Part shown: piece by piece, positions 7,382 to 32,470 of the stretch
How the letters are laid out: each line of letters starts with the position of its first letter
Numbering within the stretch: position 1 is the first letter of the stretch
Source: Candidatus Streptomyces philanthi
GTDB lineage: Bacteria > Actinomycetota > Actinomycetes > Streptomycetales > Streptomycetaceae
Reading direction: 5' to 3'
Assembly: GCA_018114805.1 (NCBI GenBank)
Contig: CP073042.1
Location: 682,001-746,000, forward strand
DNA: 64,000 bases
The notes under the pieces: model-generated
The model's input: only the letters and a program-made list of their open reading frames with translations
Database searches by the model: none
Told to the model about the DNA's origin: nothing
Made by a program: the position numbers and the translations under genes

Positions 7382-7399
7382 GACATCAGCCTTCCCTAA

Positions 7400-13988: not shown

Positions 13989-14566
13989 GTGCCCGGTCAG
14001 CGTCGCGGAGGGATCAGCCTGGGTGGAGGGGGAGAGTGAGGACACACCTGTAGAGAGTCCCGTGCCACGGCGACAGTTCCCTCCGTCTCCGGTTCTGGCC
14101 CGGGCGTACGGGGCGGGTGGGGCGGTGGTCGGGTGCGTGGGCCGGGAGGTGGGGGCGGCTGCCGGGCGGATGGTTTCATGACGCAATTGGTCGGTCGGTG
14201 GCCGCCAGTCGGCGCGTACGGAATTCCGCTCACCGGATGGTCGGAGCGCACTGCCGTCCCGTCAATGTGGCCTCTTTCGCAGCCACGCGGGCGTGGTTCC
14301 GTGGCACAATGCGGAGCGTCGCCGCCAAGATCTCTCATCGACCCGGGAATTACCGGGAGGGGCGGCGGCGACTGACCGCGCGAGGCGAAACGGGGGGCCT
14401 TGTTCCGCTCGGTTCGCGAGGGGCACGCACGTACCACCGACCGCCCCCGGACAGTGGACGCCGGGTAGCCGACGCTTTCGTTTCCGGCCGTCTCCCGTTC
14501 CGCCAGTTCTGCCGCACACTCACTAATCCGCAAGATAACCGCAAGTTCATGTGCTAGGAGCACCGC
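13989..14566. other. About 580-bp divergent intergenic region
   Basis: It lies between the - strand channel gene and the + strand MaoC-like gene. I find no ORF with family resemblance and no tRNA. It should hold both promoters; an AGGAG ribosome site precedes the start at 14567. Confidence 0.4.
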
Positions 14567-15013
14567 ATGCCCCTCGACACCTCTTACGTCGGACGGGTCT
14601 ATCCGCCCACCGCTCCTTATGAGGTGGGCCGCGAGAAGATCCGCGAGTTCGCGACGGCCGTGGGGGACGCGAACCCGGTCTTCACCGATCCCCGGACGGC
14701 GCGGGAGCACGGGCACGCCGACGTGATCGCCCCGCCGACGTTCATCTTCACCCTCGCCCAGCGCGCCACCGACCAGGTGGTGCACGACCCCGAACTCGGC
14801 CTCGACTACGGCCACGTGGTCCACCGCGACCAGCGCTTCGTGTACAGCCGGCCCATCTACGCCGGTGACCGGCTGACGGTGGTCGTGCACGTGGACGGCA
14901 TCAAGGCGCTGGCCGGCAACGACATGGTGGAGCTGCGCGGCGAGGTGGGCACCGACCAGGGCGAGCACGTGGTCACCGTCTACCTGACCCTGGTCTCCCG
15001 GGCCGCGGACTGA
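14567..15013 (+). CDS. MaoC-like (UPF0336/FAS1-type) dehydratase subunit
   Basis: A 148-residue hot-dog fold protein, complete, with AGGAG upstream of ATG. It shows PYEVGREKIREFATAVGD, then DANPVFTD and VIAPPTFIFTLAQRA, typical of the N-terminal MaoC-like dehydratase family in actinomycetes (HadA/UPF0336 type). These proteins hydrate or dehydrate acyl thioesters with a partner. The downstream gene is convergent, so there is no operon partner here. It may be a chromosomal gene beside the biosynthetic cluster rather than part of it. Confidence 0.82.
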   Translation: MPLDTSYVGRVYPPTAPYEVGREKIREFATAVGDANPVFTDPRTAREHGHADVIAPPTFIFTLAQRATDQVVHDPELGLDYGHVVHRDQRFVYSRPIYAGDRLTVVVHVDGIKALAGNDMVELRGEVGTDQGEHVVTVYLTLVSRAAD

Positions 15014-15102
15014 CACTTCGCGGCACCAGGTGGGGGCGCCCACCGCGAGCGCGGGCCGCCCCCGGGAGGCCGCCGTGCAGGTGCTGACCGACCGCGACCG
15101 GT

Positions 15103-16377
15103 TCAGGTCTTGCTCGGCACCCGCTCGTCGCTGTCGCCGCTCGGTACGGGCCCGCTCGGCGGAGTCCGACGCGGCAGAGGCCGGCTCGGCGAAGTCCGGC
15201 GTGCCGGGCACCACGCCCTCCTCTCGCGCGGCGCCGCCGCTGCCCGGGGCTGGCCGCGTCGACCGGGAGCCGCTGAGGTAGCGCGTGCCGGGCTTCTCGA
15301 CCACCTCGTACAGTACCGCCGAGATCGCCAGGCTGACCAGCAGGAAGCCGATGATGACGAGGACGGCCTGGCCGGTCTCCCAGTTCCTGCCGCGGCCCAG
15401 CCAGTCGTGCCCGTACAGCAGGACCAGCAGGTGCACCAGGTAGAAGGCGAACGAACGCTCGCCGAGCCAGACCATCGGCCGGCTGGCGAACCAACCGCCC
15501 CTGCCGCGGATGTCGGCGGCGGCGGCCGGGATGAACAGCGCGATCAGGATGATGGTGGCGGCCACCAGGCTGTAGAGGTACGGGACCTCCCGCGCGGCCA
15601 GGTAGTAGCCGACGCCGAACAGCGCGATCGGCATGACCAGCGGCAGCCGGAACCACCTGCCCTCGGCCACGACCCGGGCCAGCAGCATGCCGAGTACGAA
15701 CTCCAGGGCCCGTACCGGCGGGAAGACGTAGACGAACCAGTACTGCTTGAGGCTCGCGGTGCCGTCGGGGAGCATCATCACCGGGTCCTCGGTGACCAGC
15801 TTGGCCACCAGCGGCACGCACATGATCGCGGCGGTCACGACCACGGTGGCGGGCCACAGGTGCGAGGCGCGGATGCGGGAGACGCCCGTCCACAGCACGG
15901 GGAAGGCCAGGTAGAAGAAGAGTTCGCAGGCAAGCGACCAACTGACGGCGTTGCCGCTGAGGAACATGTCGTACTCGGGCCACCAGGAGTGGATCAGCAA
16001 CAGGTTGGTGATCGCCTCGTCGGCGTCGACCGTGCCCGCCGCGGCCAGCATGCCGTCGGTGCGCGAGAGCAACCAGAAGGCCACCAGGGCGGTCACGAGG
16101 TGCCCGGGGTAGACCTTGGCGATCCGGCGGCGCCAGAACCTTGGCGCGCGCTCGCCCTCGCGGCGCGACCAGGCGAGGACGAACCCGCTGAGCACGAAGA
16201 AGAACGAGACGCCGATCCAGCCGGCTTTGTTCACGACGTCGGCGTAGTCGCCCTGCGCCTGGGATCGCGGAAGAAGCGCTCCCAGGCGACGTGGAAGGCG
16301 AAGACCATCAGCGCGGCGATGAAGCGCATGCCGGTCAGCGAGGGCAGGCGGGACGTGCGTTGGTGCGTGGGGGTCAT
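15103..16377 (-). CDS. Acyltransferase 3 (OafA/YrhL-type) membrane protein (frameshifts)
   Basis: An integral membrane O-acyltransferase with about ten helices. It starts at ATG 16377 (LPSLTGMRFIAALMVFAFHV, with the conserved R and H of the family). After an indel near 16262 it continues GWIGVSFFFVLSGFVLAW. The core ends near LYEVVEKPGTRYL, followed by a charged, Glu/Ala/Arg-rich tail. The long open frame runs on through the MaoC gene on the other strand, which is implausible. A second indel near 15140 would end it as VPSKT at 15103 and give an even multiple of three. It is the last gene of the - strand cluster and could acylate the product or an exported glycan. Confidence 0.75.
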
Positions 16378-16437
16378 GGTGTGGTGCTCCCTAGAGGCCC
16401 GGCGCCTGGCCGGCTCGGTGTGTCGGTGGTGCCCCGT

Positions 16438-17868
16438 TCAGGCGCGGAGGGCCCGGTCGGTGAGAGCCGACGCCGCCCCGGTGTAGCGGGCGGGATCGAG
16501 CAGCCCGTCGATCTCCTCCTGGTCGAGGTGGGCGGTGACGTCGGGCAGTTCGGCGAGGACCGCGCCGAGCCCCGGGCCGCGCTCGACGGCGGTGGGGGCC
16601 GCCGTGCAGAGCACGGCCTTGGCACGCGCCTTGCCCAGGTGCGGGGTGAGTACGGCGGCGACGCGCTCGGAGACGATCTGCCCGTCGGTCAGGGCGAGGT
16701 TGGCGCGCATCCGCTCCGGGTGCGGCTCAAGGCCCGTCAGGAGTTCGGCCGCGGTGTGCGCGGCGCCGCCGGCCAGCCGCAGGCACTCGCGCAGCGGCTG
16801 CCACTCGGCGTGCCACGCGCCGCCGGAGCGCTCGTCCTCGGTGAGCATGCAGCCGTACAACCCGGCCGCCAAATGAGGCAGTTGCAGGGCGGCCGAGCGG
16901 ATCAGGGTGGCCAGCACGGGGTTACGCTTGTGCGGCATGGCCGAGGACGCGCCGCGCCCGGCCGGCCCCGGCTCGCTGACCTCGCCGACCTCGGTGCGGG
17001 CCAGCGACTGCACGTCCACGGCGATCTTGCCGAGCGCGCCGGCCAGGAACGAGGTGGCCGCCGCGACGTCCGCCAGCGGGGTGCGCAGCACGTGCCAGGG
17101 CAACAGCGGGACGGCCAGGCCCAGTTCCTCGGCGTACGCGGCGGTCAGGGCCTCGCCGTACGCGGCGGCCTCGGCTCGCCGCCGCTCCCGGTCCGCACCG
17201 TCCCCGGTGTCCCCGTGGCCCGCGTACTCCAGGTAGCCGGCCAGCGTGCCGGCGGCGCCGCCGAGTTCTACCGGCAGCGTGTCGGCCAGTGTCTGGAGGC
17301 GGTGGGTGGCCTGGCGGACCAGGTCGAGCCAGCCGGCCGCCTTGAGCCCGAAGGTGGTCGGGACCGCGTGCAGGGTGAGCGTGCGGCCGGCCATCGGGGT
17401 GTCCCGGTGGTCGCGGGCCAGCCGTTCCAGGGCGACCCGGCAGCGGTCCAGGTCGGCCAGGATCAGCCGCACGGCCCGCCGGGTGACCAGCATGGCCGCG
17501 GTGTCCAGCACGTCCTGGCTGGTGGAGCCGCGGTGGACGTAGTCGGCCGCCAGCGCGTCCCGGTCGGCCACGGCGGCGGTCAGCGCCTGTACGAAGCCGG
17601 CGACCGGGTTGGCGGTCTCCCGGGCCGCGTGCGCGAGGGCCACCAGGTCGAGTTCCGCGTCGGCGCCGACGGCGGCGATGACCTCCGCCGCCCGGGCCGG
17701 GACCGTGCCCAGCCTGGCCTGGGCACGGGCCAGGGCGACCTCCGCCTCGATCATGGCGCGCAGCCACGCCTGGTCGTCGACCTCCGCTTCGACGGGCGTG
17801 GCCGCTCTGACCGGGGACAGCAGTCCCGCGTCCAACGACCCGGCAGGTTCACTGCGGTGGGCTGTCAT
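16438..17868 (-). CDS. CreD-like nitrosuccinate lyase (fumarase/aspartase superfamily)
   Basis: A complete protein of about 476 residues of the argininosuccinate lyase/fumarase superfamily, PcaB-like branch. The signature SSAMPHKRNP is present, with HRGSTSQDVLDT and LTLHAVPTTFGLKAAGW. Such enzymes perform beta-elimination. Taken alone it could be 3-carboxymuconate cycloisomerase or adenylosuccinate lyase. Directly upstream lies a CreE-like FAD protein, and this pair defines the aspartate-nitrosuccinate route, in which the lyase splits nitrosuccinate into nitrous acid and fumarate. No protocatechuate or purine genes are near. The two genes are 97 bp apart and co-directional. The family is certain; the CreD function rests on context. 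Confidence 0.85.
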   Translation of the reverse strand: MTAHRSEPAGSLDAGLLSPVRAATPVEAEVDDQAWLRAMIEAEVALARAQARLGTVPARAAEVIAAVGADAELDLVALAHAARETANPVAGFVQALTAAVADRDALAADYVHRGSTSQDVLDTAAMLVTRRAVRLILADLDRCRVALERLARDHRDTPMAGRTLTLHAVPTTFGLKAAGWLDLVRQATHRLQTLADTLPVELGGAAGTLAGYLEYAGHGDTGDGADRERRRAEAAAYGEALTAAYAEELGLAVPLLPWHVLRTPLADVAAATSFLAGALGKIAVDVQSLARTEVGEVSEPGPAGRGASSAMPHKRNPVLATLIRSAALQLPHLAAGLYGCMLTEDERSGGAWHAEWQPLRECLRLAGGAAHTAAELLTGLEPHPERMRANLALTDGQIVSERVAAVLTPHLGKARAKAVLCTAAPTAVERGPGLGAVLAELPDVTAHLDQEEIDGLLDPARYTGAASALTDRALRA

Positions 17869-17965
17869 CTCGTTACTCGCGTCCCTTCGTGGGCCTTCTT
17901 GGGCCTTCGTGGGTGGGTGGGGTACGTCGGGTCGGATGGTGGGGTGGGCTGTGGGTCGGGCGTGG

Positions 17966-19951
17966 CTAGGCCGCGCTCTGGGTGCGGGCCGGCTCCGGGG
18001 CGGGGGCGGGGGCGGTCGCGGTGCCGCAGGCCAGGGCGGCCAGGGCGATGGCGTCGGAGTCGGTGAGGGTCACCGATCCCGCCCCCGGTCTGATGCCGGC
18101 GGCGGTGACCCAGTGCACGGCCTCGGTGGGCACGCCGAAGGCGAAGCGGCGCGGGTGCGGGCGGTCGGCGGCGTCCAGGAGGTGGAACGGGCGGGCGGTG
18201 ACGGCCAGGCCGTCGGTCTCGTACCAGCCGCCGTCCCGGGTGGCGACGCGGTGCGCGCGGCACTGTCCGCTGGCCTGGAGGTGGCGCAGCAGCGCGTCGC
18301 CGGTGCGGCGCAGCGTGATGTCGGGCAGCCGGGCCTCGATGAGGAACCGCGCGCGCACCGTCGAGTCCGGGACGTACGGGGACCAGGCGCGGTAGCCGTC
18401 CTCGGTGACGTCCACGCGCAGGTCGGGGCCGATCACGCGCAGCACGCCTGCCTCGATGAGCGCCACCGTCTCCTCGGTACGCCGGGCGGGCGGGCCGATG
18501 GACAGGTAGGCATTGAGCGGAGTGTACCAGCGGTCGAGGTGTTCGCGGTGGCTGTCGCCGTGCAGACCGCCGTGGTCCACCACGAGCCGGATCTCGTTGC
18601 GCAGGTCGCGCAGCACGTCGAGGGCGGCCTTGTGCGGGCCGCTGACGTTGCCCTGGCGGGCCTGGGCGACGTCCTCCCGGAGGTGGTCGACGAGCCAGCG
18701 CTCGAAGTGGTCCGGGCCGCCGAACTCCTGGTCGCGATAGGGGTGGGCGAGGCCGTCCCAGTCCCAGCGGTCGGCGCCGGTGATCCCGTACGCGTCGAGC
18801 ACCCGGGACTCCTCGGCGCTGTTCCAGGGGCGGTCCAGGTACTCCTTGCGGAACGCCTCGACGTCGGCGGCCAGGCCGCGGCGGGTCAGCAGGGCGCTGT
18901 AGTAGACCGTCTCGGCCTCCTTGGCGACCAGCGGCCACACCTCGGCACGGAAGTCCACGCCCGGGCTGTCCTCGGGCCTGCGGTGCAGCTCCGCGATCTT
19001 CTCGGGAGTGAGCAGCAGCGGCTCGTGCCGGCCGTGCGGGCCCTTCTGGTTCTCGCCGCGCGCCTGGTACGGGATGCCGCGGCGGGAGCCGGCGTACAGG
19101 CGCGGCTCGCGGCCCGACGGCCGGTAGACCAGGCGGCCGGCCACGCGCTCGAAGGCGCCGCCGCGGCCGGCGGTCAGCAGGGCCTGGTAGTCGAAGAAGT
19201 TCAGCCCGAGGCCGCGCAGCAGCATCGATTCGCCGGCGCCGATCGCGCTCAGGTCGACGTCGGCCGGGTTGGCCGGCGGCAGGTAGCCGAGTCCGTGGGC
19301 GCTGGCCTGCTCGGCGATCGCGCGCTCCCCCGCGCCGGCGTCGGCGGGCAGGTGGCCCAGGGCGAGTACCACGGTGTCCAGCCCGTCCAGCACGGTGCCG
19401 TCGGACAGCGTCACCCGCTGGAGCGGCACCTCGTGTCCCGGCCGCGGCTGCGCGTCATCCAGGGCGACGGCCCGGGCGGCGTGCGTGGTGAGGCGCACGT
19501 GAGCCGGGGCGCCGGCGACGATCCGGTCGAAGACCCAGGTCAGGTACTGGCCGTAGAAGGCACGGGTGGGGTACGAGTCGGGGCCCAGCTCGCGCGCCTC
19601 GGCGAGGGTGACGTCGCGGTAGGCCGGGTCGCCGCAGTCGGCCGCGCCGCCCGGGGCCAGCAGCGCCCGGGCCCACTGGTAGAGGCTCGGGCCCGGTTCG
19701 AGGGGGCCCTGGAGTTCGACGCTGTCGTCGGTGAACAGGGATATCTGTCCCGCGACGGTGTTCATGAGCAACTGCCGGGACTGGTCGACGCGCCAGACGC
19801 GGCCGGGCCCGGGCGGGTAGGGGTCGACGAGGTGGATATGGAGCCGGGTGTCGCGGCTGGTCCCGCGCGCGGCGGCGCACAGGCGCTCTAGCACGGAGAG
19901 GCCACGTGGCCCCGCGCCTACTACGCACACGGCTTGCTGCCTGGAGGTCAT
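17966..19951 (-). CDS. CreE-like FAD-dependent aspartate N-oxygenase
   Basis: A complete protein of about 661 residues starting at ATG 19951. The FAD site is CVVGAGPRGLSVLERL at residues ~8-23. NAD(P)H-binding elements follow (LDTVVLALGHLPADAG, and LRGLGLNFFDYQ), and the C-terminal third is rich in conserved W/Y (VPTEAVHWVTAAG). This architecture matches the FAD/NAD(P)-binding family containing CreE, which oxidises L-aspartate to nitrosuccinate. Together with the CreD-like lyase it would generate nitrous acid. Direct alternatives in this family are uncharacterised FAD-NAD(P) proteins. The upstream gap to the anthranilate synthase gene is a purine-rich tract (19975-20085). Confidence 0.85.
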   Translation of the reverse strand: MTSRQQAVCVVGAGPRGLSVLERLCAAARGTSRDTRLHIHLVDPYPPGPGRVWRVDQSRQLLMNTVAGQISLFTDDSVELQGPLEPGPSLYQWARALLAPGGAADCGDPAYRDVTLAEARELGPDSYPTRAFYGQYLTWVFDRIVAGAPAHVRLTTHAARAVALDDAQPRPGHEVPLQRVTLSDGTVLDGLDTVVLALGHLPADAGAGERAIAEQASAHGLGYLPPANPADVDLSAIGAGESMLLRGLGLNFFDYQALLTAGRGGAFERVAGRLVYRPSGREPRLYAGSRRGIPYQARGENQKGPHGRHEPLLLTPEKIAELHRRPEDSPGVDFRAEVWPLVAKEAETVYYSALLTRRGLAADVEAFRKEYLDRPWNSAEESRVLDAYGITGADRWDWDGLAHPYRDQEFGGPDHFERWLVDHLREDVAQARQGNVSGPHKAALDVLRDLRNEIRLVVDHGGLHGDSHREHLDRWYTPLNAYLSIGPPARRTEETVALIEAGVLRVIGPDLRVDVTEDGYRAWSPYVPDSTVRARFLIEARLPDITLRRTGDALLRHLQASGQCRAHRVATRDGGWYETDGLAVTARPFHLLDAADRPHPRRFAFGVPTEAVHWVTAAGIRPGAGSVTLTDSDAIALAALACGTATAPAPAPEPARTQSAA

Positions 19952-19974
19952 GCGCGTCCGTCCTGCCGGTAGAG

Positions 19975-20085
19975 GTGGTGGTGGGGTGACGGTGGAGGTG
20001 GAGGTGATGCTGACTTGCAGGGGGGTGAGGGTGGAGGTGGTGCTGCCGGTTGGGGGGAAGGTGCCGGTGGGGCTGGCGGGTTCAG
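19975..20085. repeat. G/A-rich strand-asymmetric tract with GGTGGAGGTG repeats
   Basis: On the + strand this gap is dominated by repeated GGTGGAGGTG/GGTGGTGGTG and a GGGGGG run, so the transcribed RNA of the - strand operon is C/U-rich here. It lies between trpEG and the CreE-like gene. It could pause polymerase or form a G-quadruplex on the template strand. Confidence 0.5.
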
Positions 20086-20124
20086 TGGGCTGGCGCTGTC
20101 GGCGGGCGGGGCCCGCCGGTCCGT

Positions 20125-22372
20125 TCACCGGCCGGTTCCGCGCGGCGCCCGGCGCATCAGGTGGGTCACGGCGTTGCCGATGACGGTCGGGCCGGTGTAC
20201 CCGGCGACGGTGAGGATCGACTCCGGGTGGAACTGCACGGCGGCGAAGCCGCGTTCGGGCATGTCCACGGCCATCGCGCCCCCCTCCTCCGTGGTCGCGG
20301 TGACCTTGAGCTGTTCGGGAAGCAACTCGGGCACCGCGTACAGCGAGTGGTAACGGCCCGCTTCGAAGGCCGGGGGCAGCCCGTCCAGCAGGAGGGAGTC
20401 GGTGGTGGTGCGCAGGACGCGCGAGCGCTTGCCGTGCACGGGCGCGGGCAGCGTGGCCAGGCGTCCGCCGAAGTACTCGACCAGGCCCTGGAGTCCCAGG
20501 CAGACCCCGAAGGCGGGGATGGCCAGGCGTTCGGCCTCGGCGATGTTGGCGGCGGTGGCGAAGTCGGAGGGGGTGCCGGGGCCCGGCGAGAGCACCACCA
20601 AGTCGGGCAGCCGCTCCTCCAACAGGCGCAGGTGGCCGCCGCTGCGGTAGGTGTCCACCTGGGCGCCGGTCTCGCGGAAGTAGCCGGCCAGGCAGTGCAC
20701 GAAGGAGTCGCGGTGGTCGACGATGAGCACGCTGCGCCCCTCGCCCGGTGCCTGGCGCACGTGCAGCCGGCCGGCGGCCGGCCGGTCGACGCTGTCCTCC
20801 AACACCTCAAGCAGCGTCCTGGCCTTGAGTTCGGACTCCTGCTCCTCGTCCTCGGGCCGCGAGTCGTGCAGCAGCGTCGCGCCCACCCGCACGGTGGCCA
20901 CGCCGTCGCGCAGCTCGATGGTGCGCAGCGTGAGCACCGTCTCCAGGCCCGTCGAACCCGACCCGGCCGACGGCCCCGCCGTACCAGCGGCGCGGCGAGC
21001 GCTCGTGCCGCTCGATGAACTCGACGGCCGCCAGCTTAGGCGCGCCGGTCACGGTGACCGCCCACAGGTGGGCCATCAGGGCGTCCAACACGTCTAGGCC
21101 CGGGCGCAGTTCGCCCTCGACGTGGTCGACGGTGTGGATGAGGCTGGAGTACATCTCGACGCGGCGCCGGGCGGTGACGCGTACGGTGCCCGGCACGCAC
21201 ACCCGGGACTTGTCGTTCCGGTCCACGTCGGTGCACATGGTCAGCTCGTTCTCGTCCTTGGCCGAGTTGAGCAGGGCGCGGATGTGCTCCGCGTCCTCCA
21301 GGGCGTTGCCGCCGCGCCGGATGGTGCCGCTGATCGGCGACGACTCGACGAGGGTGCGCGTCCCGTCGGCGCCCGTGTCGCGGCGGACCCGGACGAACAC
21401 CTCCGGTGACGCGCCGACCAGGAACTCCCCCTCGGCGAGGTTCATCAACAGGCTGCGCGGGGTGGGGTTGCGGTGCCGCAGCCGGCGGAAGAGCCGGGCA
21501 GGTCTTCCGGCGCTGACCGCGCGCCGGAAGACCTGCCCGGGCACGGCCTCGAACAGGGCCCCGGAGCGGAACAGCGGCATGGCCGCGTCCACGACCCGGG
21601 CGTACTCGCCGGGCTCCAGGTCCCGCTGCCTGAACGGCCGCCGGCCGGGGGTGACCGGACAGGCGGGGGTGGTGCGCTCCAGCCCCTCGGTGCTGCCGCC
21701 CGGCACCCGGAACTCGTAGGCGTGCCGCAGCGCCTCGTCGCTGTGCAGGTCGAGTTCGTACAGCGCGTCCGGCAGGTGCAGCACCATGTCGCGGTCGCCG
21801 GGCGCGCGCCGCTGGTGCTGCTCCATCGGGTCCACCTGGAAGATCAGGTCGTAGTCGAACGCACCGTACAAGCCGAACAGCGGGTCGGGCCCGGCCATGC
21901 CCTCGACCAGGGCCCGCACGGCGGCGAAGACGCCGACCTGGCGGGTGCGGTCCTCCTCGGCGAACAGCCCGGCCGGCGGCGCGCCCTGCACCCGCACGCT
22001 GTCCCCGCCGCGCGCGGTGCCGTCGGCCCCCGTGAGGCCGCTGATCCCGGTGAGCGAGGGCACCCCGTCCAGGAGCGCGCCGAGCACCGGGAGCAGCAGC
22101 CCGCCGCGGTCGTTGAGGGCGCGGAAGGTGACTTGGGCGCCGGACGCGGTGACCTCGACGGGCGGGTCGAGGTAGCCGATGGCCTGGTCGCCGTCCCGGA
22201 ACTGGAGCAGCCCGCGGCGTTCACACAGCGCGTCCTCCAGGACGCCGCGGGTGGCCGCGGCGCTGCCGACGTGCTCGGTGGTGCGCACCACGCGCACGCC
22301 GGCCGGCGTGGTCCACAGCATGGTCTCCGCCGCCCGGGCGGCGGGTGGCTCGGCGGCTTCCAGCAGGGTCAT
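20125..22372 (-). CDS. trpEG: Fused anthranilate synthase TrpE-TrpG (one frameshift)
   Basis: Converts chorismate and glutamine to anthranilate. The TrpE part (start ATG 22372) has EFLVGASPEVFVRVR, SPISGTIRRGG, the strongly conserved ELTMCTDVDRNDKSRVCVPG and AVTVTGAPKLAAVEFIE. After a one-base break near 20945 the frame continues LTLRTIELRDGVATVRVGAT and then the glutamine amidotransferase domain. That domain holds VLSPGPGTP, FGVCLGLQG with the catalytic Cys, and the QFHPESIL His-Glu. This is the fused clade known from alphaproteobacteria and Streptomyces, about 749 residues. A cluster-borne copy supplies an aryl amine precursor. PhzE-type ADIC synthase is less likely, since no phenazine or isochorismatase gene is near. 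Confidence 0.9.
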
Positions 22373-22427
22373 CTCCCGGCTCCTTTCAAGCCCAGGTGCC
22401 GCGTGGGCACCCATGTCAGTCACCGGG

Positions 22428-24098
22428 TCACGCGGTGGTGGTCCAGAGGAGGTCTGCGCGGGCGGACTGCACGTGGGTCCAGCCCTGACTGAGTTCGGCC
22501 GGCGGGCAGACGTAGGCGGTGCGGGCGCCGGTGGCGGCACGGACGCGTTCGCTCAGCGCCATCTGGGCGGCCCGGTTGTCGGCCGCGTCGCCGTCGCCCG
22601 GGGCCACCGCCACCACGTCCACGGGCTCGGCACGCACCAGTTCGGCCACCCGTGCCACGGCCGCGGCAACCGGCTCCTCGGCGGGCGCGGTGGCGCGCAC
22701 CAGGACGCCGGCCCGGGCGCCGGGCGCCGCCGCGCGCGCCTGCCGCAGACGGGCCCTCGCACCGTCCGGGAACGCCTCCGACGGACCCGTCGTCGCGTCG
22801 AGTTCGACGACCACGGTCTCCGCGTCCCGCGCCGGCGCCACGGGTTCGTCCGCCCGCCGCACGAGCACCGCGTCGCCGGGTCGGGCCGGCTCGCCCGCGC
22901 GCACCAGGGCGGGCACCGGCTCGGTGGGCCTGGGGGTCCACGCGTGCCCGCAGCGCTCGGCGAGCCCCTTGTCGAGGCGCAGCAGCAGGTCGGCCGGGGA
23001 CTGTCCGCTGCGGCTGAGCAAGCGCAGCATCAGCGTGCCGACGTCCAGGTCAGCGTGGTCCTCCTGGTGCTCCCACATCCGGCAGCTGGCCCAGGCCGCC
23101 CGCTGGATGCCGGCCACGATCGGCCGACGCGCCCTCTCGTACGCGACCAGGGCGTCCGCCAGCGCGTCGGGGCCTGTCCCGGCGGCGCCATGCAGGCGGC
23201 GGGCGAGTTCGGTGCCGTCCTCCAGGGCCATGGTGGTGCCGGAGCCGACCGAGAAGTGCGCGGTGTGCACAGCGTCGCCGATGCCGACCAGGCGGCCGTG
23301 GGACCAGCGGTCGGCGTCGACGTGCGAGAACGTCAGCCAGCGCGACCCGTTGCCGATCAGCCGCGCGCCCTCCAGGTCGGCGGCGAACACCTTGGTACAG
23401 TACTCCATAGCCTGCTCGTCGTTCCACCCCGGCGGCTGGGTGCGCCCGTCGACGAACCCGCCGGCCCGGAAGGTCTCCGCGCTGATCTCCACCAGGAAGG
23501 TGGACTTGTCCCGGGTGTACGGGTAGACGTGCGCGCCGACCGGGCCGTGCCAGCTGTCGGCGAACAGGAAGGTCATCGCGTCGAAGGCGCGCTCCACGCC
23601 GAACCACGCGTACCGGCTCCCGCCGGTGACCTGGCGGGCGCCCCACTGGGTGGCGTGGGCCGCGCGGGTGCGGCTGCCGGCGCCGTCGGCGGCGACCACC
23701 ACGTCGTAGCGCTCCAGCAGTTCGCCGGCGTCGGCCTCGGTGCGGTAGTGCAGTCGGGCGCCGGACGCGCGGGCCAGCTCCTGCAGGCTCAGCAGCAGCG
23801 CGCGGCGCTCGACGGCGGCGAAGCCGTGCCCCGAGGAGCGCACGGCGTGGCCGTCGCGGCGCACCTCCACGTCCTCCCAGCGGGCGCCCTGGTCGAGGAG
23901 GGCGGCGACCACGTCGGGCGCGGCCTGCCGCAGCCGGGCCAGGCTCAGCCGGGAGAAGACCACGCCGAAGCCGAACGTGGCGTCGGCAGGGCTGCGCTCG
24001 AAGACGTCCACCTCGTGGTCGCCGAGCCGGCGCAGCAACAGGGCGAGCATCAACCCGCCGGGACCCGCTCCCACGCATGCAACTCGCATCGTCCTCAT
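22428..24098 (-). CDS. Anthraniloyl/salicylyl-CoA-type FAD monooxygenase
   Basis: A 556-residue single-component FAD hydroxylase. The N-terminal dinucleotide motif CVGAGPGGLMLALLLRRLG is followed by FGFGVVFSRLSLARL and the diagnostic GDAVHTAHFSVGSGTTMALE. This matches salicylyl-CoA 5-hydroxylase and the monooxygenase half of 2-aminobenzoyl-CoA monooxygenase/reductase. Those relatives carry a C-terminal old-yellow-enzyme domain. Here only about 150 residues follow, of which the last part (ERVRAATGARTAYVC) still resembles the end of such a barrel. The start ATG overlaps the upstream ligase stop as ATGA, so aryl-CoA formation and ring hydroxylation are coupled. Likely step: hydroxylation of an anthraniloyl thioester. 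Confidence 0.85.
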   Translation of the reverse strand: MRTMRVACVGAGPGGLMLALLLRRLGDHEVDVFERSPADATFGFGVVFSRLSLARLRQAAPDVVAALLDQGARWEDVEVRRDGHAVRSSGHGFAAVERRALLLSLQELARASGARLHYRTEADAGELLERYDVVVAADGAGSRTRAAHATQWGARQVTGGSRYAWFGVERAFDAMTFLFADSWHGPVGAHVYPYTRDKSTFLVEISAETFRAGGFVDGRTQPPGWNDEQAMEYCTKVFAADLEGARLIGNGSRWLTFSHVDADRWSHGRLVGIGDAVHTAHFSVGSGTTMALEDGTELARRLHGAAGTGPDALADALVAYERARRPIVAGIQRAAWASCRMWEHQEDHADLDVGTLMLRLLSRSGQSPADLLLRLDKGLAERCGHAWTPRPTEPVPALVRAGEPARPGDAVLVRRADEPVAPARDAETVVVELDATTGPSEAFPDGARARLRQARAAAPGARAGVLVRATAPAEEPVAAAVARVAELVRAEPVDVVAVAPGDGDAADNRAAQMALSERVRAATGARTAYVCPPAELSQGWTHVQSARADLLWTTTA

Positions 24099-25960
24099 AC
24101 CCCCTTGGCCGGGGTGGTGGGCGGAAGGTCCGCCTCACCAGTCCCGCTGGTGTCCTGTGCGGCGCCGTCGGTCGGCGCCTGTGTGCTGGTCGAAGCGGCG
24201 TCGGCACCGCTCGGCCGGGCGCCCGAAGCGCCCCCGCCCGGGCCGGTGGTCGGCCCGCCGCCCGGCGTCGGACGGGTCGCCTCTGCGTCCCTGGCCCGGG
24301 CGTCGGTCGCCTGGACGTCCGTGGCCTGGACGTCGGTGGTCGGCGTGTCGGTTGCCCGGGTGTCGGCGCCCGGCGCGCCGGTGGGCGGGACCTCGGCGGG
24401 CTGGGACGTGGCGGGCCGGTCGGTCGGGCCCCGGGTGCCGGTGGCCGGCTGGTCGAGCTGGGCGCGCAGCACCCGGCGCAGCACCTTGCCCGCGGTGCTG
24501 CGCGGCACCTCGGGGACGAACACGACGCGCGCCGGGCACTTGTAGCCGGCCAGTTCGGCGACGCAGGCGGCGAGCAGGGGGGACGCCCTCGGCGCCGGCT
24601 CGGCCGGGGCGACGAACGCGACCGGCACCTCGCCCCACCGGGCGCACGGCTCGCCCACCACGGCCACGTCCGCCACCCCCGGCTGGGCCGCGAGCACCCG
24701 CTCGACCTCGGCCGGGTAGACGTGCCGGCCGCCCCGGTCGATGACGTCGCGGAGCAGGTCGACGAGGTAGAGATAGCCGTCCGGGTCGGCGTACGCGGCG
24801 TCGCCGGTGCGCAGCCAGCCGTCGCGCAGCACCTCGGCCGTCGTAGCCTCGTCGCCCCAGTAGCCGAGCATCCGCCCATCGCCGCGCACGGACAGCTCAC
24901 TGATCTCGCCGGGCGGCACCCGGCGGCCCGCGCGGTCGTGGACCTCGATGTGGCAGCCGGGCAGCATCCGCCCCGCCGAGCGCAGTCGCAGTTCGGCGGT
25001 GGCGTCGGCGGTACCGGCGGCACCACCGGTCACCTGGGCGCGGTCGAAAAGCGCGGCGGCGACGGGCCCGCCGCCCTCGGTGATGCCGTAGACGTTGCGC
25101 AGCGGGCACGGGAAGCGCTCAAGGGCCTCCCGCAACACCTCGTCGGGGAGGGGCGCGCCGCCGCACATCACCTCGGTGAGGGTGGCCAGCTCCGTCGCGT
25201 CGAAGGCCACCTCGCGCAGCACGGCGCGGACCATGGCGGGCACCAGGAAGGCGCGGGTGGCGCGGTACCGGGCCACGTCGGCCAGGAAGCGCCCCGGGGC
25301 GAACCCGGGCTCCAGGACGAGGGTGCCGCCGGCGGCCAGCAGGGCGAGGCCAATCACCACGCTGCCGTGGAACAGCGGGCACGGGTGGACCATGACGTCG
25401 TCCGGGCCGAAGCCCAGCTCGGCGGCCATGCCGGTGTAACAGGCGGACTGGGAGCGGTGGGTGACCGTCACGCCCTTGGCCCGGCCCGTGGTGGCCGAGG
25501 TGTGCAGGATCGCGTGGACGTCGTCCTGCCGGGGCAGCGGCAGCACGCGCACCGGCCCGGTGGCCATCGCCTCGTACGCGGGCGAGCCCAGCGCCACCCG
25601 CCAGCCGTCGCCGAACGCGTCGCCGTGCCGGTCGAGCACGGCCCGCTCGGCGAAGACGGCCACCGGCTCCACGGTGTCGATGACGTACGCGACCTCGGGC
25701 CCGGGGAAGGTGTGGTTGACGGGACAGACGATGACGCCCGCCTTGGCCGCCGCGACGTACAGCTCAAGGACCTCGGCGCGGTTCGGCGAGCTGACCGCGA
25801 TCCGCTCGCCGCGCCGTACGCCCCGGTCGAGCAGCGCGCTGGCCAGCGCGTCAGTGCGGGCGTCCAGCTCGCGCCAGGTCAGCTCGCGCGCGCCGGCAAC
25901 CACCGCCAGCGCGTCGGGGCGCTGCTGGCGGTGGCAGCGGACGAAGTGCGCCACCCACAT
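24095..25960 (-). CDS. Acyl-AMP/CoA ligase with long disordered tail (CreM-like candidate)
   Basis: Adenylating enzyme of the ANL superfamily, about 621 residues. The P-loop-like motif is degenerate: TSATTGRAKGV instead of TSGTTGxPKG. Other motifs are intact: YGITEGGG, WLRTGDAAYADPDGY, the GGRHVYPAEVE hinge, and RSTAGKVLRR with the catalytic lysine. The last ~110 residues are a Thr/Pro/Ala/Gly tail with short TDVQATDVQATD repeats, unlike the family. Its gene overlaps the aryl-CoA monooxygenase start. It may make anthraniloyl-CoA. In clusters with CreE/CreD, fatty-acyl-CoA-ligase homologues (CreM) instead use ATP and nitrite to diazotise an aryl amine, so both roles are open. Confidence 0.82.
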   Translation of the reverse strand: MWVAHFVRCHRQQRPDALAVVAGARELTWRELDARTDALASALLDRGVRRGERIAVSSPNRAEVLELYVAAAKAGVIVCPVNHTFPGPEVAYVIDTVEPVAVFAERAVLDRHGDAFGDGWRVALGSPAYEAMATGPVRVLPLPRQDDVHAILHTSATTGRAKGVTVTHRSQSACYTGMAAELGFGPDDVMVHPCPLFHGSVVIGLALLAAGGTLVLEPGFAPGRFLADVARYRATRAFLVPAMVRAVLREVAFDATELATLTEVMCGGAPLPDEVLREALERFPCPLRNVYGITEGGGPVAAALFDRAQVTGGAAGTADATAELRLRSAGRMLPGCHIEVHDRAGRRVPPGEISELSVRGDGRMLGYWGDEATTAEVLRDGWLRTGDAAYADPDGYLYLVDLLRDVIDRGGRHVYPAEVERVLAAQPGVADVAVVGEPCARWGEVPVAFVAPAEPAPRASPLLAACVAELAGYKCPARVVFVPEVPRSTAGKVLRRVLRAQLDQPATGTRGPTDRPATSQPAEVPPTGAPGADTRATDTPTTDVQATDVQATDARARDAEATRPTPGGGPTTGPGGGASGARPSGADAASTSTQAPTDGAAQDTSGTGEADLPPTTPAKGV

Positions 25961-26143
25961 CAGAGGACCTCCCGGCCGGCGGCGTCCCCGCGAGCGCCGG
26001 GCGTGGCGCGGGCGACGGAGTCGACCGCTGCCGGCAGGTCGCCGCGGCCCGGCGGCAGTCGGTGACCCTGTGTGAACTGGTCGGTCACGGCTTCGGCTTC
26101 CCCTCGTGGTGTGCGGGTGGTGCGGGCGCGCGGGCGCGGTGGG

Positions 26144-28226
26144 CTAGCAGCCGGCCTCCGAGTCCCCGCGCGACGCGGCCGGGGCGGGGGCGGTGGCCGC
26201 GCCGCCCTCCCGGAGCCCGAAGCGCCGGCGGAGGCTGGCCAGCGGGCCGGGGGCCCACCAGTTCCACGTGCCGGCCAGTCGCATGAAGGCCGGCACGAGC
26301 ACGCCACGCACCAGGGTCGCGTCCATGATCACTGCCAGCGCCATGCCGAGCCCCAGGATCTTCATGTACGTGATGCCGGAGACGGCGAAGGACAGGAAGA
26401 CCGTCGCCACGAGCACGGCGGCGGCCGTGACGATGCAGCCGGTGCGCTCCAGGCCCAGCGCGACGGAGCGGGTGTTGTCGCCGGTCAGGTCGTACTCCTC
26501 CTTGATCCGCGAGAGGAGGAAGACCTCGTAGTCCATGGAGAGGCCGAACACCACGCAGAACATCATGATCGGCGTGGTGGCCACGATGCCGCCGGTGACC
26601 GTGAAGTCGCCCACCAGCCACCGCAGGTGCCCGTCCTGGAAGATCCAGACCATGGCGCCGAAGGTGGCCGTCAGGCTGAGCAGGTTGAGTACCAGCGCCT
26701 TGACGGGCACCAGGACGCTGCCGGTGAGCAGGAAGAGCAGGACGAAGGTGGAAACGGCGATAAGCGCGATGCTGTACGGCAGCCGGTCGCCGAGCGAGTC
26801 CATGGTGTCGCGGAACGCGGGCCCGGTGCCGCCCACCGTGACGTCGAAGGGCGCCTTGGTGGCGCGGACTTCGCGCACCACGTCCTGGCCCTCGTCGCTG
26901 TAGGAGCCGACGCTGGGCACCACCGACAGCCAGGTGCCGTCCTCGCCCGCGTACCGGGCTGACTCCTTGGTGGCCCGGCCGACCTGGCGGTCCTGGGCGT
27001 ACGAGCCGGTCAGCGCGTCCACCCGGGCGACGTTGTCGAGTTGGGACAGCGCGCTGGCGTAGTCGCCGATCTCGGCCGTCCTGGCGCTCGGGTCGCCGAG
27101 GCCCTCGGCGACGACCATGACCGGTTCCATCTCGCGGGCCGTGTAGTCCCGCGAGAGCGTGGTGTTGACCCGGTGCGCCTCGGCGTCCTCGGGCAGCGCG
27201 CGCTCGTCGGCGAGGTTGAAGCTGATGCCGAGGAACGGGCCGCCGAGCACGAGGAACGGGCCGCCGAGCACCAGGAGTACGACGACGACACCGGAGGCGA
27301 ACGGGACCGGGCGGCGCATCACCTTGGTGGCGACCTGGTGCCAGAACCCGTCCTCGACCGATCTGGTGCGCTGCTTGGTCCACGACCACTTGTTGATGCG
27401 GGGCCCGATGACGGCCAGCAGCGCCGGCAGCATCACCAGGGTGGAAAGCGCGGCGAAGGCCACGGCGGTATCGGCTGACGACAAAGAGGCTGTAGCCGAG
27501 TCCGAGTCCGAGCCCCGTCGTCATATTCATCGCGAACACCGAGACGTCGGTGAACGAGACGAGGATCTGGAACACCAGCATGGCGCCGATGATGGAGACG
27601 ATTCCGAGCGCGAGCGGCAACAGGGCGGCGATGACGCCGCGGAAGACCAGAATCAGCAGAATCAGGGTGATGGGCAGCGCGATGGTTTCCGCGAGCAGCA
27701 GGTCGTCCTGCGTCTGGACGTTCAACTCGCGGTACGCCTCGGCCCGGCCGCCTAAGAGGACGTCGAGCCCCTCGAAGCCGTCCGCGTAGTGCGGGAGCAG
27801 CTTCTCCAGGTTGTCCTCCACCTCGTCCTCGTCGCCCTCCAGGTGGGCCAGGACGAGCGCGGAGTCGGACTCCTCGCCGCGCAGCGAGGGGTCCTTGCCC
27901 AGGGTCCAGTAGGAGCCGGCCGACTGGACGCCGGGCTCCTGGCTGAGCTTCCTGGTCAGTTCGGCGCCCTTGCGCGCGGTCTGCGCCTGGTCCGCACCCT
28001 GTGGGGTCCTCACCAGCAGCACCAGGTTGGGTTCGCCGGTGCCGAAGCGGTCGGTCAGCGCCTTGCTCGCCTTGGTCGACTCCGCGTCCGGCACCTCGTA
28101 CCCGCCCGACGACAGCTTGCTCGACACGCTGCCGCCGAGCCCTCCGGCGACCACGCAGAAAAGCAGGCACAAGATCAGCACCAGCTTTCTGCGTCCGGTC
28201 GCCAGCGCTGCCAGCTTGTTGAACAT
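26144..28226 (-). CDS. MMPL/RND-family exporter (one frameshift)
   Basis: About 694 residues. It starts MFNKLAALATGRRKLVLILC with the first helix, then a soluble porter domain with FGTGEPNLVLLVRTPQG and a membrane bundle (LLLAETIALPITLILLILVFRG, LGLGYSLFVVSRYR). After a break near 27480 come DTAVAFAALSTLVMLPALLAV, a second porter domain and SMDYEVFLLSRIKEEYD, typical of MMPL proteins. These transport lipids or lipophilic metabolites by proton motive force. Its place in the middle of the cluster suggests export of a lipophilic product. A TTA leucine codon is printed at 27753-27755. Confidence 0.88.
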
Positions 28227-28298: not shown

Positions 28299-29285
28299 TC
28301 AGTCGGCCAGTGGCAGCGGGCGGCAGTCGACCAGAATTCGCTCGCCATTGGCGGAGACGTGATCGGCCAGTGGCTCTTCGGCCGTCCGGTCCCAGGCGAG
28401 TACGCGGTTGTGAACGGAGCCTCGGCAGAAGTCGGCGAACTCCGGTGCGGTATTGCGCTGGCGTCCGCCGAGATAGGCGAGCACCGGGTCGAGCACCAGC
28501 CAGCGCCCCTCCTCGTACACCTCGGTCCAGGCGTGCTCGACGCCGATGAGACCGAGCAGGAACCCCTTGCGGGTGCGGGCGCGCAGGCCGGCCTCCTCGG
28601 CGTGCTCGCGCATCAGTCAGGCGGAGACCACGCAGTCGGCCATCCGGTGGGCGAGGGCGGTGCGCGGCTCGGCGCGCAGCGTGCCGGGGATCCAGCCGTA
28701 CTGGTAGACGCCGGTGGCCAGTTCGTCCAGGAGTTGGTCGTGGATGTCGCGCACGGCGTCGGTGCGCGGACCGTCCACCAGGCCCCGGGTGGTCAGGCGG
28801 GCCTCGGCGGTGCCGGGGCCGTCGACATCCGCCTGCCAGTCGATGTGTTCGCCGCCGAGCACCTTGGGCGCCGGGGGCAGCGGGGCGACCACGGTCTCGG
28901 GCGAGCCCTCGACGGAGGCGGCGAGCCGCACGCGCCACTTGCGGGGCGCCGTGCAGCTCTCCGGCTTGCCCGTGGCCAGCCGCATGCAGGAGCGCTCGCC
29001 GAGTTCGGCCACCGACCGGCCGGTGCCGGACTGCAGGCCCAGGTTCATCACGTCGTGGTAGTCGAACCGCGGGCCCTGCGGCGTCTCCTCGGCAGGGAAG
29101 CCGGCCGCCACGAGCAGCTCCACCAGGTCGGCGTAGACGCCGAGTTGGTGTGCCGCCTCGTCCACGCCGAGCCTGGCGTCCCGGTGCCCGGTGGGCACCG
29201 GGATCATCTTCTCCACGCCGCGCTTCATGGCCTCAAGCCGCGAGGTCAGCGGGTCGCCTGCCGCGTTCCGGTGATCGGTCGTCAT
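28299..29285 (-). CDS. Transglutaminase-fold protein (in-frame TGA)
   Basis: About 328 residues. A transglutaminase/cysteine-protease catalytic triad is visible: Cys in MADCVVSA, His in VEHAWTEVY and Asp in LVLDPVLAYLGG. A TGA at 28617-28619 falls two residues after the Cys motif, in the same frame, and the frame continues LMREHAEEAGLRARTRKG. TGG would fit. In the andrimid and related pathways a transglutaminase homologue forms an amide bond between carrier-bound acyl groups and amines. Located next to an ACP and its ligase, an amide-forming role is a reasonable inference. Readthrough or correction is needed for activity, since the His and Asp lie beyond the stop. Confidence 0.75.
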
Positions 29286-30858: not shown

Positions 30859-31142
30859 TGGTCGGCTCCCTCGCGGACGGCCGCGCGGGGGTCGGGCTCG
30901 GCGGCGATGTGCGCCACCAGGTTGTAGAACGAGGAGACGGCGTCGACCGAGTCCAGCAGGTCCCACTCGACGCCGAAGGTCTCGTCGATGGCGTCGAGCA
31001 GGCGCATGAAGCCGGTCGAGGTCAGGCCGAGGTTCCACAGCGGCACCGTGCGGGCGCCCGGCTCGTCCAGCGGCACGGCGCCGCCGACTATGTCCTCCAG
31101 CAGGGCGCGCAGCTTCTCCGCTACCGCTTCCGGGCTGTGCAT
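30855..31142 (-). CDS. Stand-alone acyl carrier protein
   Basis: Ninety-five residues with a typical carrier fold. The phosphopantetheine attachment serine is the Ser of NLGLTSTGFMRLLDAID, followed by FGVEWDLLDSVDAVSSFYNL. GGAGGA precedes the ATG at 31142 by a normal distance. Its stop overlaps the downstream ligase start, so the two are made together. It probably carries the acyl unit that the neighbouring transglutaminase-like or reductase proteins act on. Confidence 0.85.
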   Translation of the reverse strand: MHSPEAVAEKLRALLEDIVGGAVPLDEPGARTVPLWNLGLTSTGFMRLLDAIDETFGVEWDLLDSVDAVSSFYNLVAHIAAEPDPRAAVREGADQ

Positions 31143-31155: not shown

Positions 31156-32470
31156 TCACTGCCCGCGTGTGCTGGCAGGCTCGGGTGGTACGGGTGGTAC
31201 GGGTGATGCTCGACAGTGCGGGCGTTACGGAAGGTGCGGCGGTCGCGGCCACCGTGTGCGGGCCGCGACCGCCGCGGCCTGGCCGTGGCATAGGCCACGC
31301 GCAGGCGCTCGGTGGCGGGCTTGACCACGCGCCCGAGGCCAGCGCTCTCGTCGAACCCCCGCTGCTGGCGGAGGAAGTACAGGACGTACTCGGCCAGGTC
31401 GTAGAGCCCATCGAAGCCCGCGAGGCGTCCGCGCCGCAGACCGCGTCGGTGTGCGTCAGGTCGAACGTCTTGCTGTTCTTCATGTGCGGGCGGTAGAAAT
31501 GTGCGGGCAGTAGAAGTCCATGCCCTTGTCGAAGACGTCGTCCACGGGCGTGAAGTCGGTGGTGTCCGAGGCCCAGATGGGGCTGGGCAGGCCGACCAGG
31601 TCCATCACCGTGGTGATGACGTCGCTGGGGTGGTGGGCTGCTCGGAGTTGGCCAGGTGGAAGAAGGTCTCCGGGGAGTCGGAGAGCGCGATGGAGACCGC
31701 GTTGCGGGCCACCATGTCCACCGGCACGAAGTTCAGCCAGGACCCGGGGTCGGCCAGCAGCCGCACCGGGGTGTCGGGCAGCATCTCCACGCCGAGCCGG
31801 CGCCCGGCCACCCGCTTGAAGAGCAGCACCTGGCGGGCGAAGCCGTACATGCCGGACCAGTTGATGCCGTGCCGGGTGACGCTGTGCCCGATGACGATGC
31901 TGGGGCGCAGCACGCGGACGCGCATCCGCTCGGCGGCGTCCAGGACCAGCGCCTCGGCCTGGATCTTGGAGCGCTCGTAGCTGTTGTTGGCCACCGAGGT
32001 GTCGGTGGCGCGCTCCTCGCAGATCAGGCCGCGCCGGGCGCCGGCGACGTAGGAGGTGCTGACGTAGTGGAACGTGGTGGCGCCGAGGTCCTGGGCGAGT
32101 CGGAGGATGTTGCGGGTGCCGCCGATGTTCTGCGCCTCGATCTCCTCGCGGTACTCCTCCTCGTACCGCAGGGACGCCGCGCAGTGCCACAGTTCGTCGA
32201 TCCGGGGGGCGGTGGTCAGGTCGACGCCACCGCCGGCGACCGTCATGTCGCCGCGGACGGCTCGGGTGCGCTCGGCGATCGCGGTGGCTAGCTCGGGGCG
32301 TCCGTAGCCTTCGGCCAGGCCGTTCAGCGCCTCGTGCAGGCGCTTGGTCGCTACCTCGTCGTCGCTGCCGCGCACCATGGCGTAGATGACGCCATGGTGC
32401 GCTCCAGCAGTTCCAGGACCACGGTGCCGCCGACAAAGCCGGTGGCCCCGGTCAGCAGACGGATCGTCAT
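31156..32470 (-). CDS. Thioester-reductase-like SDR (several breaks, 3' end unsure)
   Basis: Extended short-chain dehydrogenase of the fatty acyl/thioester reductase type. It starts MTIRLLTGATGFVGGTVVLELL at 32470 with the NADP motif TGATGFVGG. After an indel near 32395 it reads DELWHCAASLRYEEEY, FHYVSTSYVAG, and NSYERSKIQAEALV with the YxxxK catalytic pair (Tyr, Lys). Breaks follow near 31628, at a 17-bp tandem duplication (31482-31515) and near 31425. The tail includes LYDLAEYVLYFLRQQRGFDE. The end at 31156 is my estimate. It could release a carrier-bound acyl group as aldehyde or alcohol. Confidence 0.72.

What the first reader, a model, noticed from the sequence alone, without database searches (positions are those of the whole stretch)
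15103..25960. Nitrous-acid (CreE/CreD) genes joined to a dedicated anthranilate synthase: likely N-N bond forming cluster
Seen: a CreE-like FAD protein (17966-19951) next to a fumarase-superfamily lyase with SSAMPHKRNP (16438-17868), then fused TrpEG, an anthraniloyl-CoA-type monooxygenase and an ANL ligase, all co-directional. Known: CreE/CreD make nitrous acid from aspartate, and CreM-type ligases use it to diazotise aryl amines. Inference: the cluster makes anthranilate, may hydroxylate it as a CoA thioester and nitrosates or diazotises it, giving a diazo, triazene, benzotriazinone-like or hydrazone product. The combination with the carrier-protein branch does not match a cluster I know.
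Basis: partly seen in the sequence, partly recalled or inferred. Interest (0 to 1): 0.88.

Follow-up and report, generated by a model that had tools for sequence, protein, structure and literature searches.

The report
Nitrous-acid anthranilate diazotisation gene cluster
A conserved Streptomyces gene cluster encodes close relatives of the two enzymes known to make nitrous acid, beside a dedicated anthranilate synthase and a likely diazotase, and it is predicted to make a reactive diazonium form of a hydroxylated anthranilate lipid ester, probably by the route known for the tasikamide side chain.

Summary
The lyase is a nitrosuccinate lyase (728.9 bits, cut-off 650; 15 of 16 CreD residues discussed in print identical). 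The FAD protein matches the solved L-aspartate N-hydroxylase (E 1.6e-208; 10 of 12 named residues identical, the two others peripheral). The likely diazotase is a second ANL protein at 29308-30843 with D-A-A-H at the same site, as in solved CmaA6 and Tri17. The rest fits an anthranilate ester: a 5-hydroxylase-type flavoprotein, carrier protein, thioester reductase, a transglutaminase-like enzyme and an MMPL exporter. The closest known system is the tasikamide aha cluster, which makes and diazotises alkyl 5-hydroxyanthranilate; I could not obtain its gene list. So this is most likely a new member of a known kind. New here: a D-x-x-H signature in diazotase-type ANLs, and a second anthranilate/ANL2 locus without CreE/CreD in related genomes. 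Several window genes carry frameshifts or a stop, probably record errors. No product or activity was shown.

The parts
34192..36027 (-). SARP-type (BTAD, NB-ARC) regulator
   Evidence: Pfam BTAD 1.9e-39; a SARP also sits upstream of the G175 cluster (L042:5395-7338)
32656..33594 (-). alpha/beta hydrolase; frame broken by a 25-bp insertion relative to G170
   Evidence: Pfam; 63-94% identical orthologues in the same place; frame comparison
31290..32626 (-). thioester reductase (R-domain type); one 387-aa ORF in L009, five frameshifting differences from G170 in this record
   Evidence: Pfam NAD_binding_4 on the intact L009 orthologue; thioester-reductase models, below cut-off
30858..31142 (-). 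ACP1, carrier protein with LTST as likely attachment site
   Evidence: sequence located; PP-binding on the L010 orthologue
29308..30843 (-). ANL2, likely nitrite-activating diazotase (FDAAHPRT at 29965-29988)
   Evidence: motif; best PDB sequence match Tri17; best Foldseek match diazotase CmaA6
28299..29285 (-). transglutaminase-like protein, 328 aa in L009; in-frame stop at 28617-28619 in this record
   Evidence: Pfam Transglut_core on the L009 orthologue 1.4e-7; Cys218/His251/Asp266 invariant in 32 of 32 aligned
26085..28226 (-). MMPL-family exporter, broken in this record by a deletion of about 160 bp and a frame change
   Evidence: Pfam MMPL; 745-aa single ORF in L009
25963..26088 (-). remnant of a second carrier protein (ACP2); intact 85 aa in L010, L011, L012 and G175
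24095..25960 (-). ANL1, acyl-CoA/ACP ligase, predicted to activate anthranilate (GGAPLPDEV at 25136-25162)
   Evidence: Pfam AMP-binding and AMP-binding_C; best PDB matches 8weu/8wev, fatty-acyl-/feruloyl-CoA synthetase; motif
22428..24098 (-). flavoprotein monooxygenase, predicted to hydroxylate the anthraniloyl thioester
   Evidence: NCBIfam salicylyl-CoA 5-hydroxylase 322.8 bits (cut-off 1078), VioD 153.8 (cut-off 620); VioD best in PDB
20125..22540 (-). TrpEG-type anthranilate synthase (two ORFs here, one in relatives)
   Evidence: NCBIfam TrpE-clade3 / PRK13566 best on both parts, each part alone below cut-off; 749-aa ORF in L009
17966..19951 (-). CreE-type L-aspartate N-hydroxylase (nitrosuccinate synthase)
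   Evidence: 8cp2 E 1.6e-208; 10 of 12 named residues identical
16438..17868 (-). CreD-type nitrosuccinate lyase
   Evidence: NF052556 728.9 bits, cut-off 650; 15 of 16 residues identical
13997..16234 (-). membrane acyltransferase (Acyl_transf_3), 428 aa in L009, frame broken here; present in L009 and G170, no match in L010, L011 or the G175 stretches
   Evidence: Pfam

Best explanation
The cluster is predicted to make nitrous acid from aspartate with its CreE and CreD proteins and to use it, through the second ANL enzyme at 29308-30843, to diazotise an ester of 5-hydroxyanthranilate, most likely by the same logic as the tasikamide aha cluster. Steps, each inferred unless marked: (1) TrpEG would turn chorismate into anthranilate. 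(2) ANL1 would load it as a thioester on CoA or a carrier protein. (3) The flavoprotein would hydroxylate the thioester, probably para to the amine (C5), as the name of its best-matching family suggests. (4) ACP1 and the thioester reductase would supply an alkyl alcohol, and the transglutaminase-like enzyme is the best candidate for joining it to the aryl acyl group as an ester. (5) CreE and CreD (family and catalytic residues shown here) would supply nitrous acid. (6) ANL2 (diazotase-type motif and fold match shown here) would adenylate it and diazotise the ester. (7) The MMPL protein would export the lipid. The diazonium would then couple without an enzyme to a carbon nucleophile, as reported for tasikamides.
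For: CreD and CreE identity and residues. ANL2: D-x-x-H at the A4 site in 44 of 44 aligned sequences (ANL2 and 43 of its 120 listed homologues), in 30 of 30 AvaA6-model loci (of 40 listed matches; 11 over the cut-off) and in 30 of 30 P0045-family loci (of 116 hits). Same motif in solved diazotase CmaA6 (8ztz) and Tri17 (9bq0). GGAP in FadD13 and 4CL, 8weu and ANL1; GGAP, GGSP, AGSP, AGEP or GGCA in the six other own-genome ANL regions readable, two of them ANL1 and its paralogue. CmaA6 is ANL2's best Foldseek match. Genomes with P0045-family ANLs carry CreD in 58 of 65 cases against 71 of 134 without (p 1.4e-7), AvaA6-model genomes in 34 of 34. Conserved order in 7 genomes, one only as far as TrpEG. 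Transglutaminase-like homologues share contig length with 16 of 29 close ANL2 homologues and 0 of the next 34. Aha11 takes AHA esters but not the free acid and needs the para-hydroxyl (PMC11705231, passages).
Confidence: 0.66

Rival explanations
1. ANL2 is an acyl-ACP ligase that charges ACP1 for reduction by the thioester reductase, and the diazotase is encoded elsewhere, for example at the second CreE/CreD locus at 1.71 Mb.
For: ANL2 lies beside ACP1 in the loci checked; ANL2' sits beside ACP2' in a locus without CreE/CreD; AvaA1/CmaA1 are proven acyl-ACP ligases in diazo clusters (PMC10777205, passages); two of the 120 listed relatives are named FadD22; CoA ligases outrank CmaA6 in the PDB sequence list.
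Against: D-A-A-H replaces the GGAP motif of acid-activating ligases; the two best distinct PDB sequence matches carry D-A-x-H; CmaA6 is the best Foldseek match.
Confidence: 0.2
2. Diazotisation is cryptic: the diazo group is removed by a reductase, as in avenalumic or p-coumaric acid biosynthesis, giving a 3-hydroxybenzoate-type ester.
For: The ava and cma clusters do this, and more than 100 related clusters are reported (PMC10777205, abstract and passages); the cluster has an SDR-fold reductase.
Against: The reductase is of thioester-reductase type, and it gives no match to the SDR gene between AvaA6 and CreE of an ava-type locus even at E 10 (L147). No other AvaA7-like gene was seen among the genes annotated here.
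Confidence: 0.08
3. The cluster is a decaying relic in this strain; CreE, CreD, the flavoprotein and both ANLs are intact but the pathway makes nothing.
For: Frame or stop damage in six genes, including a tandem duplication of 25 bp; ACP2 is a remnant.
Against: Damage is not confined to the cluster: CreE and CreD at 1.71 Mb are split over several frames here while the S. buecherae counterparts align in one piece each (L145), and condensation-domain ORFs are 154-1580 aa in G000 against up to 7486 aa in G047 (not matched gene by gene). Orthologues of the six genes are single ORFs in S. buecherae.
Confidence: 0.15

Closest known systems
aha cluster (alkyl 5-hydroxyanthranilate part of tasikamides, Streptomyces tasikensis P46, BGC0002661)
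   Same: CreD (Aha1) and CreE (Aha2) homologues, an ANL diazotase (Aha11), an anthranilate ester as product; all from PMC11705231 passages. Anthranilate synthase, C5 hydroxylation and ester formation, inferred here, fit that product.
   Different: The aha gene list was not available, so gene order and the remaining genes could not be compared. No condensation-domain hit falls in the window; whether this genome has a tsk-like NRPS is unknown (one large NRPS region at 6.14-6.17 Mb and hits at 1.45, 5.26 and 6.33 Mb).
pzm (penzonemycin) cluster
   Same: CreD, CreE and CreM-type enzymes and an anthranilate-synthase-type gene, for an anthranilate-type amine (PMC9323291, passages)
   Different: pzm uses isochorismatase and a dehydrogenase for 3-hydroxyanthranilate; here there is a flavoprotein, carrier proteins and a thioester reductase instead
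ava and cma clusters (avenalumic and p-coumaric acid)
   Same: CreE/CreD and an ATP-dependent diazotase with D-A-A-H
   Different: 3,4-AHBA precursor, type II PKS and a denitrification reductase (PMC10777205, passages); none among the genes annotated here
aurachin starter unit (AuaEII, AuaE, AuaB; recalled)
   Same: anthranilate activated by ANL enzymes next to a carrier protein
   Different: no nitrite genes as far as recalled; AuaE itself was not compared because no sequence was to hand

Membership tests
ANS nitrous-acid pathway (CreE + CreD) | nitrosuccinate lyase family membership | tested here: met
   NF052556 728.9 bits, cut-off 650
ANS nitrous-acid pathway (CreE + CreD) | CreD catalytic and structural residues incl. 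S302, K308, R341 | tested here: met
   15 of 16 identical; the exception, V96, is reported as not relevant (residues from PMC13411527 passages)
ANS nitrous-acid pathway (CreE + CreD) | flavin-site and entry-chamber aspartate-binding residues of the N-hydroxylase | tested here: met
   10 of 10 identical to 8cp2 (residues from PMC10404684); the two residues at the tunnel entrance, R593 and R597, are Leu and Ala here
ANS nitrous-acid pathway (CreE + CreD) | nitrite formed from L-aspartate | not testable with these tools
   needs enzyme assay
ATP-dependent diazotase (CreM/AvaA6/CmaA6/Tri17 type) | ANL fold with the A3, A5 and A10 (lysine) motifs | tested here: met
   model pLDDT 92.5, CmaA6 best Foldseek match; shared with other ANLs
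ATP-dependent diazotase (CreM/AvaA6/CmaA6/Tri17 type) | D-x-x-H in place of GGAP (signature derived here, not from print) | tested here: met
AvaA6 equivalog (NF058622) | score above the curated cut-off | tested here: not met
   ANL2 49.8 bits, cut-off 975; so it is diazotase-like but not an AvaA6
ATP-dependent diazotase (CreM/AvaA6/CmaA6/Tri17 type) | ATP- and nitrite-dependent diazotisation | not testable with these tools
   needs enzyme assay
aha-type alkyl 5-hydroxyanthranilate cluster | CreD, CreE and an ANL diazotase together with anthranilate synthesis | tested here: met
   the diazotase by motif and fold only
aha-type alkyl 5-hydroxyanthranilate cluster | same gene content and order as BGC0002661 | not tested
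   primary paper not held; Aha protein letters not available
aha-type alkyl 5-hydroxyanthranilate cluster | product alkyl 5-hydroxyanthranilate or its hydrazone | not testable with these tools
   needs metabolomics

The most novel reading that the evidence does not exclude
Carrier-tethered diazotisation split over two loci: a second locus without CreE/CreD (DAHP synthase, PPTase, TrpEG', ANL1', intact ACP2', ANL2') works with the window cluster, whose own ACP2 is a remnant. Anthranilate would be diazotised while bound to ACP2', with nitrous acid supplied in trans, which would be a new mode of diazo formation on a carrier protein.
Probability: 0.15. Interest if true: 0.75.

Novelty: new member of a known kind. 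Interest (0 to 1): 0.5.

Why it matters
It places a cluster of S. buecherae and relatives, for which I found no product in print, in the small group of pathways that make aryl diazonium species, which react spontaneously and can stitch two pathways together. It gives a sequence signature (D-x-x-H in place of GGAP) that may separate nitrite-activating ANL enzymes from acid-activating ones, where generic annotation says only 'acyl-CoA ligase'. It also points to an unassigned transglutaminase-like family that occurs with these genes and may form the ester.

Tried and rejected
Adjacent ANL (24095-25960) as diazotase: rejected on its GGAP motif and CoA-ligase matches. TR as AvaA7-like denitrification enzyme: no match in an ava-type locus. 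P0045-family ANLs as acyl-ACP ligases: considered; the gene lies about 80 bp upstream of CreE in L143 and 1.3 kb upstream in L142, but in L144 neither ANL has CreE or CreD in the 20 kb fetched, so their role stays open. Tree of ANLs: five AvaA6-type rows were read from the wrong strand there and form a long false branch; they were corrected for the motif alignment, but the tree was not rebuilt, so I do not rest the case on it. NRPS search for a tsk-like partner: frame-broken hits, inconclusive. VIA-align does not separate diazotases from CoA ligases. Foldseek of the transglutaminase-like model: weak, general cysteine-protease/transglutaminase matches only (best 3isr, TM 0.36). Absence statements: no open paper held three of five cluster terms; of 17 papers with two of four terms, 10 were listed and none of those held S. 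buecherae; a search for two of CmaA6, diazotase and crystal structure gave two papers, neither a CmaA6 structure paper, so the D-x-x-H signature was not compared with print. Counts use 69 CreD places, 68, whose list was cut off and of which I did not copy the weaker part, and one; they are lower bounds. Relatedness of genomes is not controlled. An earlier count said that the ANL is directly upstream of CreE-CreD in L142-L144; that holds for L143 only.
Full report
Setting. The window is bases 682001-746000 of a 7.34-Mb single-contig genome (G000, 99.54% complete), a Streptomyces by its relatives: its cluster proteins are 81-98% identical to those of S. buecherae AC541 (L009). All cluster genes are on the minus strand.

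Nitrous acid genes. The lyase (16438-17868) passes the nitrosuccinate lyase model by a wide margin (728.9 bits, cut-off 650). It also just passes one pcaB model (362.4, cut-off 355.75) and fails the other 12 models listed. Its best solved relative is CreD, E 2.2e-167; the next, a cycloisomerase, has E 1.7e-77. Of 16 ScCreD residues discussed in PMC13411527 (passages), 15 are identical; the exception, V96, is reported there as not relevant. The FAD protein (17966-19951) has one PDB match, the Streptomyces sp. V2 L-aspartate N-hydroxylase 8cp2, E 1.6e-208. Of 12 residues named for it in PMC10404684 (one section read and passages), the 10 at the flavin, the arginine cluster and the entry chamber are identical; the two at the tunnel entrance, R593 and R597, are not. 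That the pair makes nitrite is inferred with high confidence but not shown. No phylogeny of either protein was built.

Anthranilate genes. The two ORFs at 20125-22540 are the halves of a TrpE-clade3 / PRK13566 anthranilate synthase; the orthologue in L009 is one 749-aa ORF. The flavoprotein (22428-24098) matches salicylyl-CoA 5-hydroxylase best (322.8 bits, below the cut-off of 1078; only positions 1-378 of 768 are matched) and VioD second. Of 41 genomes searched (own included), 37 have a match at E <= 1e-40; the matches other than the window gene are 33-46% identical, many inside much longer open frames. Hydroxylation of an anthraniloyl thioester at C5 is an inference from these families. ANL1 (24095-25960) is an acid-activating ligase by Pfam, PDB matches (8weu/8wev) and its GGAPLP motif.

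Association with nitrite genes. Among 199 Streptomyces genomes, those with a P0045-family ANL (E <= 1e-70) hold a CreD homologue (E <= 1e-110) in 58 of 65 cases, those without in 71 of 134 (Fisher p 1.4e-7); for AvaA6-model hits (E <= 1e-60) it is 34 of 34. Locally, CreD lies within 25 kb of at least 15 of 18, 13 of 25, 1 of 31, 4 of 7 and 10 of 35 hits going down the ranking; the 1 of 31 shows that the motif family also occurs without local nitrite genes. These counts do not correct for relatedness.

The rest of the cluster. Between the two ANLs lie an MMPL exporter (nearest model MmpL3, below its cut-off) and a 328-aa transglutaminase-like protein with Cys, His and Asp invariant in 32 of 32 aligned sequences. 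That protein has 32 homologues at E <= 0.001 among the 8000 candidates scored; 16 of the 29 closest ANL2 homologues share contig length with one of them, and 0 of the next 34 do (equal length of the longest contig is taken as the same contig). I infer an acyl-transfer role, most likely ester formation, from its fold class; Foldseek gave only general matches. ACP1 and a stand-alone thioester reductase could supply an alkyl alcohol. Two lineages exist. In L010, L011, L012 and G175 a second carrier protein, ACP2, sits before ANL1. In the window, L009 and G170 only a remnant of it is left. The G175 cluster also has a DAHP synthase; other members of that lineage were not checked for it.

Distribution and the second locus. 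ANL2 at E <= 1e-130 is found in 4 of 392 Streptomyces genomes sampled, own included, and all four carry this cluster. Three of them (G000, G047, G170) also hold a second ANL2 copy, 63-66% identical, with no CreD found within 25 kb. In the two examined (L041, L043) it lies with TrpEG', ANL1' and an intact ACP2'; DAHP synthase and a PPTase were identified in L043 only. That the second locus keeps what the first lost suggests a split pathway, the novel case above.

State of the record. Relative to G170, frameshifting differences fall in TR (5), AcT (2), abh (1), TrpEG (1) and at the last codon of CreE (1); MMPL lacks about 160 bp. The transglutaminase-like gene has an in-frame stop at 28617-28619 where L009 has Trp. 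Elsewhere in G000, CreE and CreD at 1.71 Mb are split over several frames while the S. buecherae counterparts align in one piece, and NRPS condensation-domain ORFs are 154-1580 aa against up to 7486 aa in G047. Record errors are the likelier cause, though decay is not excluded.

Comparison with the known. PMC11705231 (passages) reports the aha cluster of S. tasikensis: Aha1 CreD, Aha2 CreE, Aha11 a CreM-type enzyme that diazotises alkyl 5-hydroxyanthranilate esters but not the free acid, after which a non-enzymatic Japp-Klingemann coupling gives tasikamides. The enzymes found here can be arranged into such a route. The primary paper is not held, so gene-by-gene membership is untested; I file the window as a probable aha-type member. 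Searches for a paper that names this combination found none among the papers listed, within an open-access library only.

Noticed in passing
L022 (G000:C1:1706000-1725999), about 5.9-11.4 kb in the locus: A second CreE/CreD pair, frame-broken in this record, with a divergent D-A-I-H ANL gene (about 34% identical to ANL2), an amine oxidase, a polyprenyl synthase and a LuxR regulator; the same CreE/CreD/ANL arrangement occurs in S. buecherae (L145).
   Followed up: partly
L023 (G000:C1:6280000-6299999), 9.08-10.84 kb: A third CreE-like gene (about 41-44% identical to the window CreE) without a CreD match in the 20 kb fetched, beside a luciferase-like monooxygenase.
   Followed up: no
L041 (G000:C1:2050000-2069999), about 5.5-11.6 kb: Second anthranilate locus with TrpEG' (frame-broken here), ANL1', intact ACP2' and ANL2', but no CreE/CreD match.
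   Followed up: partly
L142, L143, L144: Stretches of other Streptomyces with D-A-I-H ANL genes and a chorismate-binding enzyme about 30% identical to TrpEG (possibly PhzE-like); in L143 the ANL gene lies directly upstream of CreE-CreD and in L142 1.3 kb upstream, resembling the penzonemycin gene set; L144 shows no CreE/CreD in the part fetched.
   Followed up: partly
window 6374-7447 and L024 11494-12577: A luciferase-like monooxygenase gene in the window has a paralogue (about 61-78% identical, frame-broken) about 14 kb upstream in the genome.
   Followed up: no
PDB 9xb8 / 9xbs: Deposited as 'Fatty-acid-CoA ligase FadD', this chain carries the D-A-V-H motif and matches an AvaA6-type diazotase strongly (E 6.3e-95), so it may be a diazotase.
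   Followed up: no
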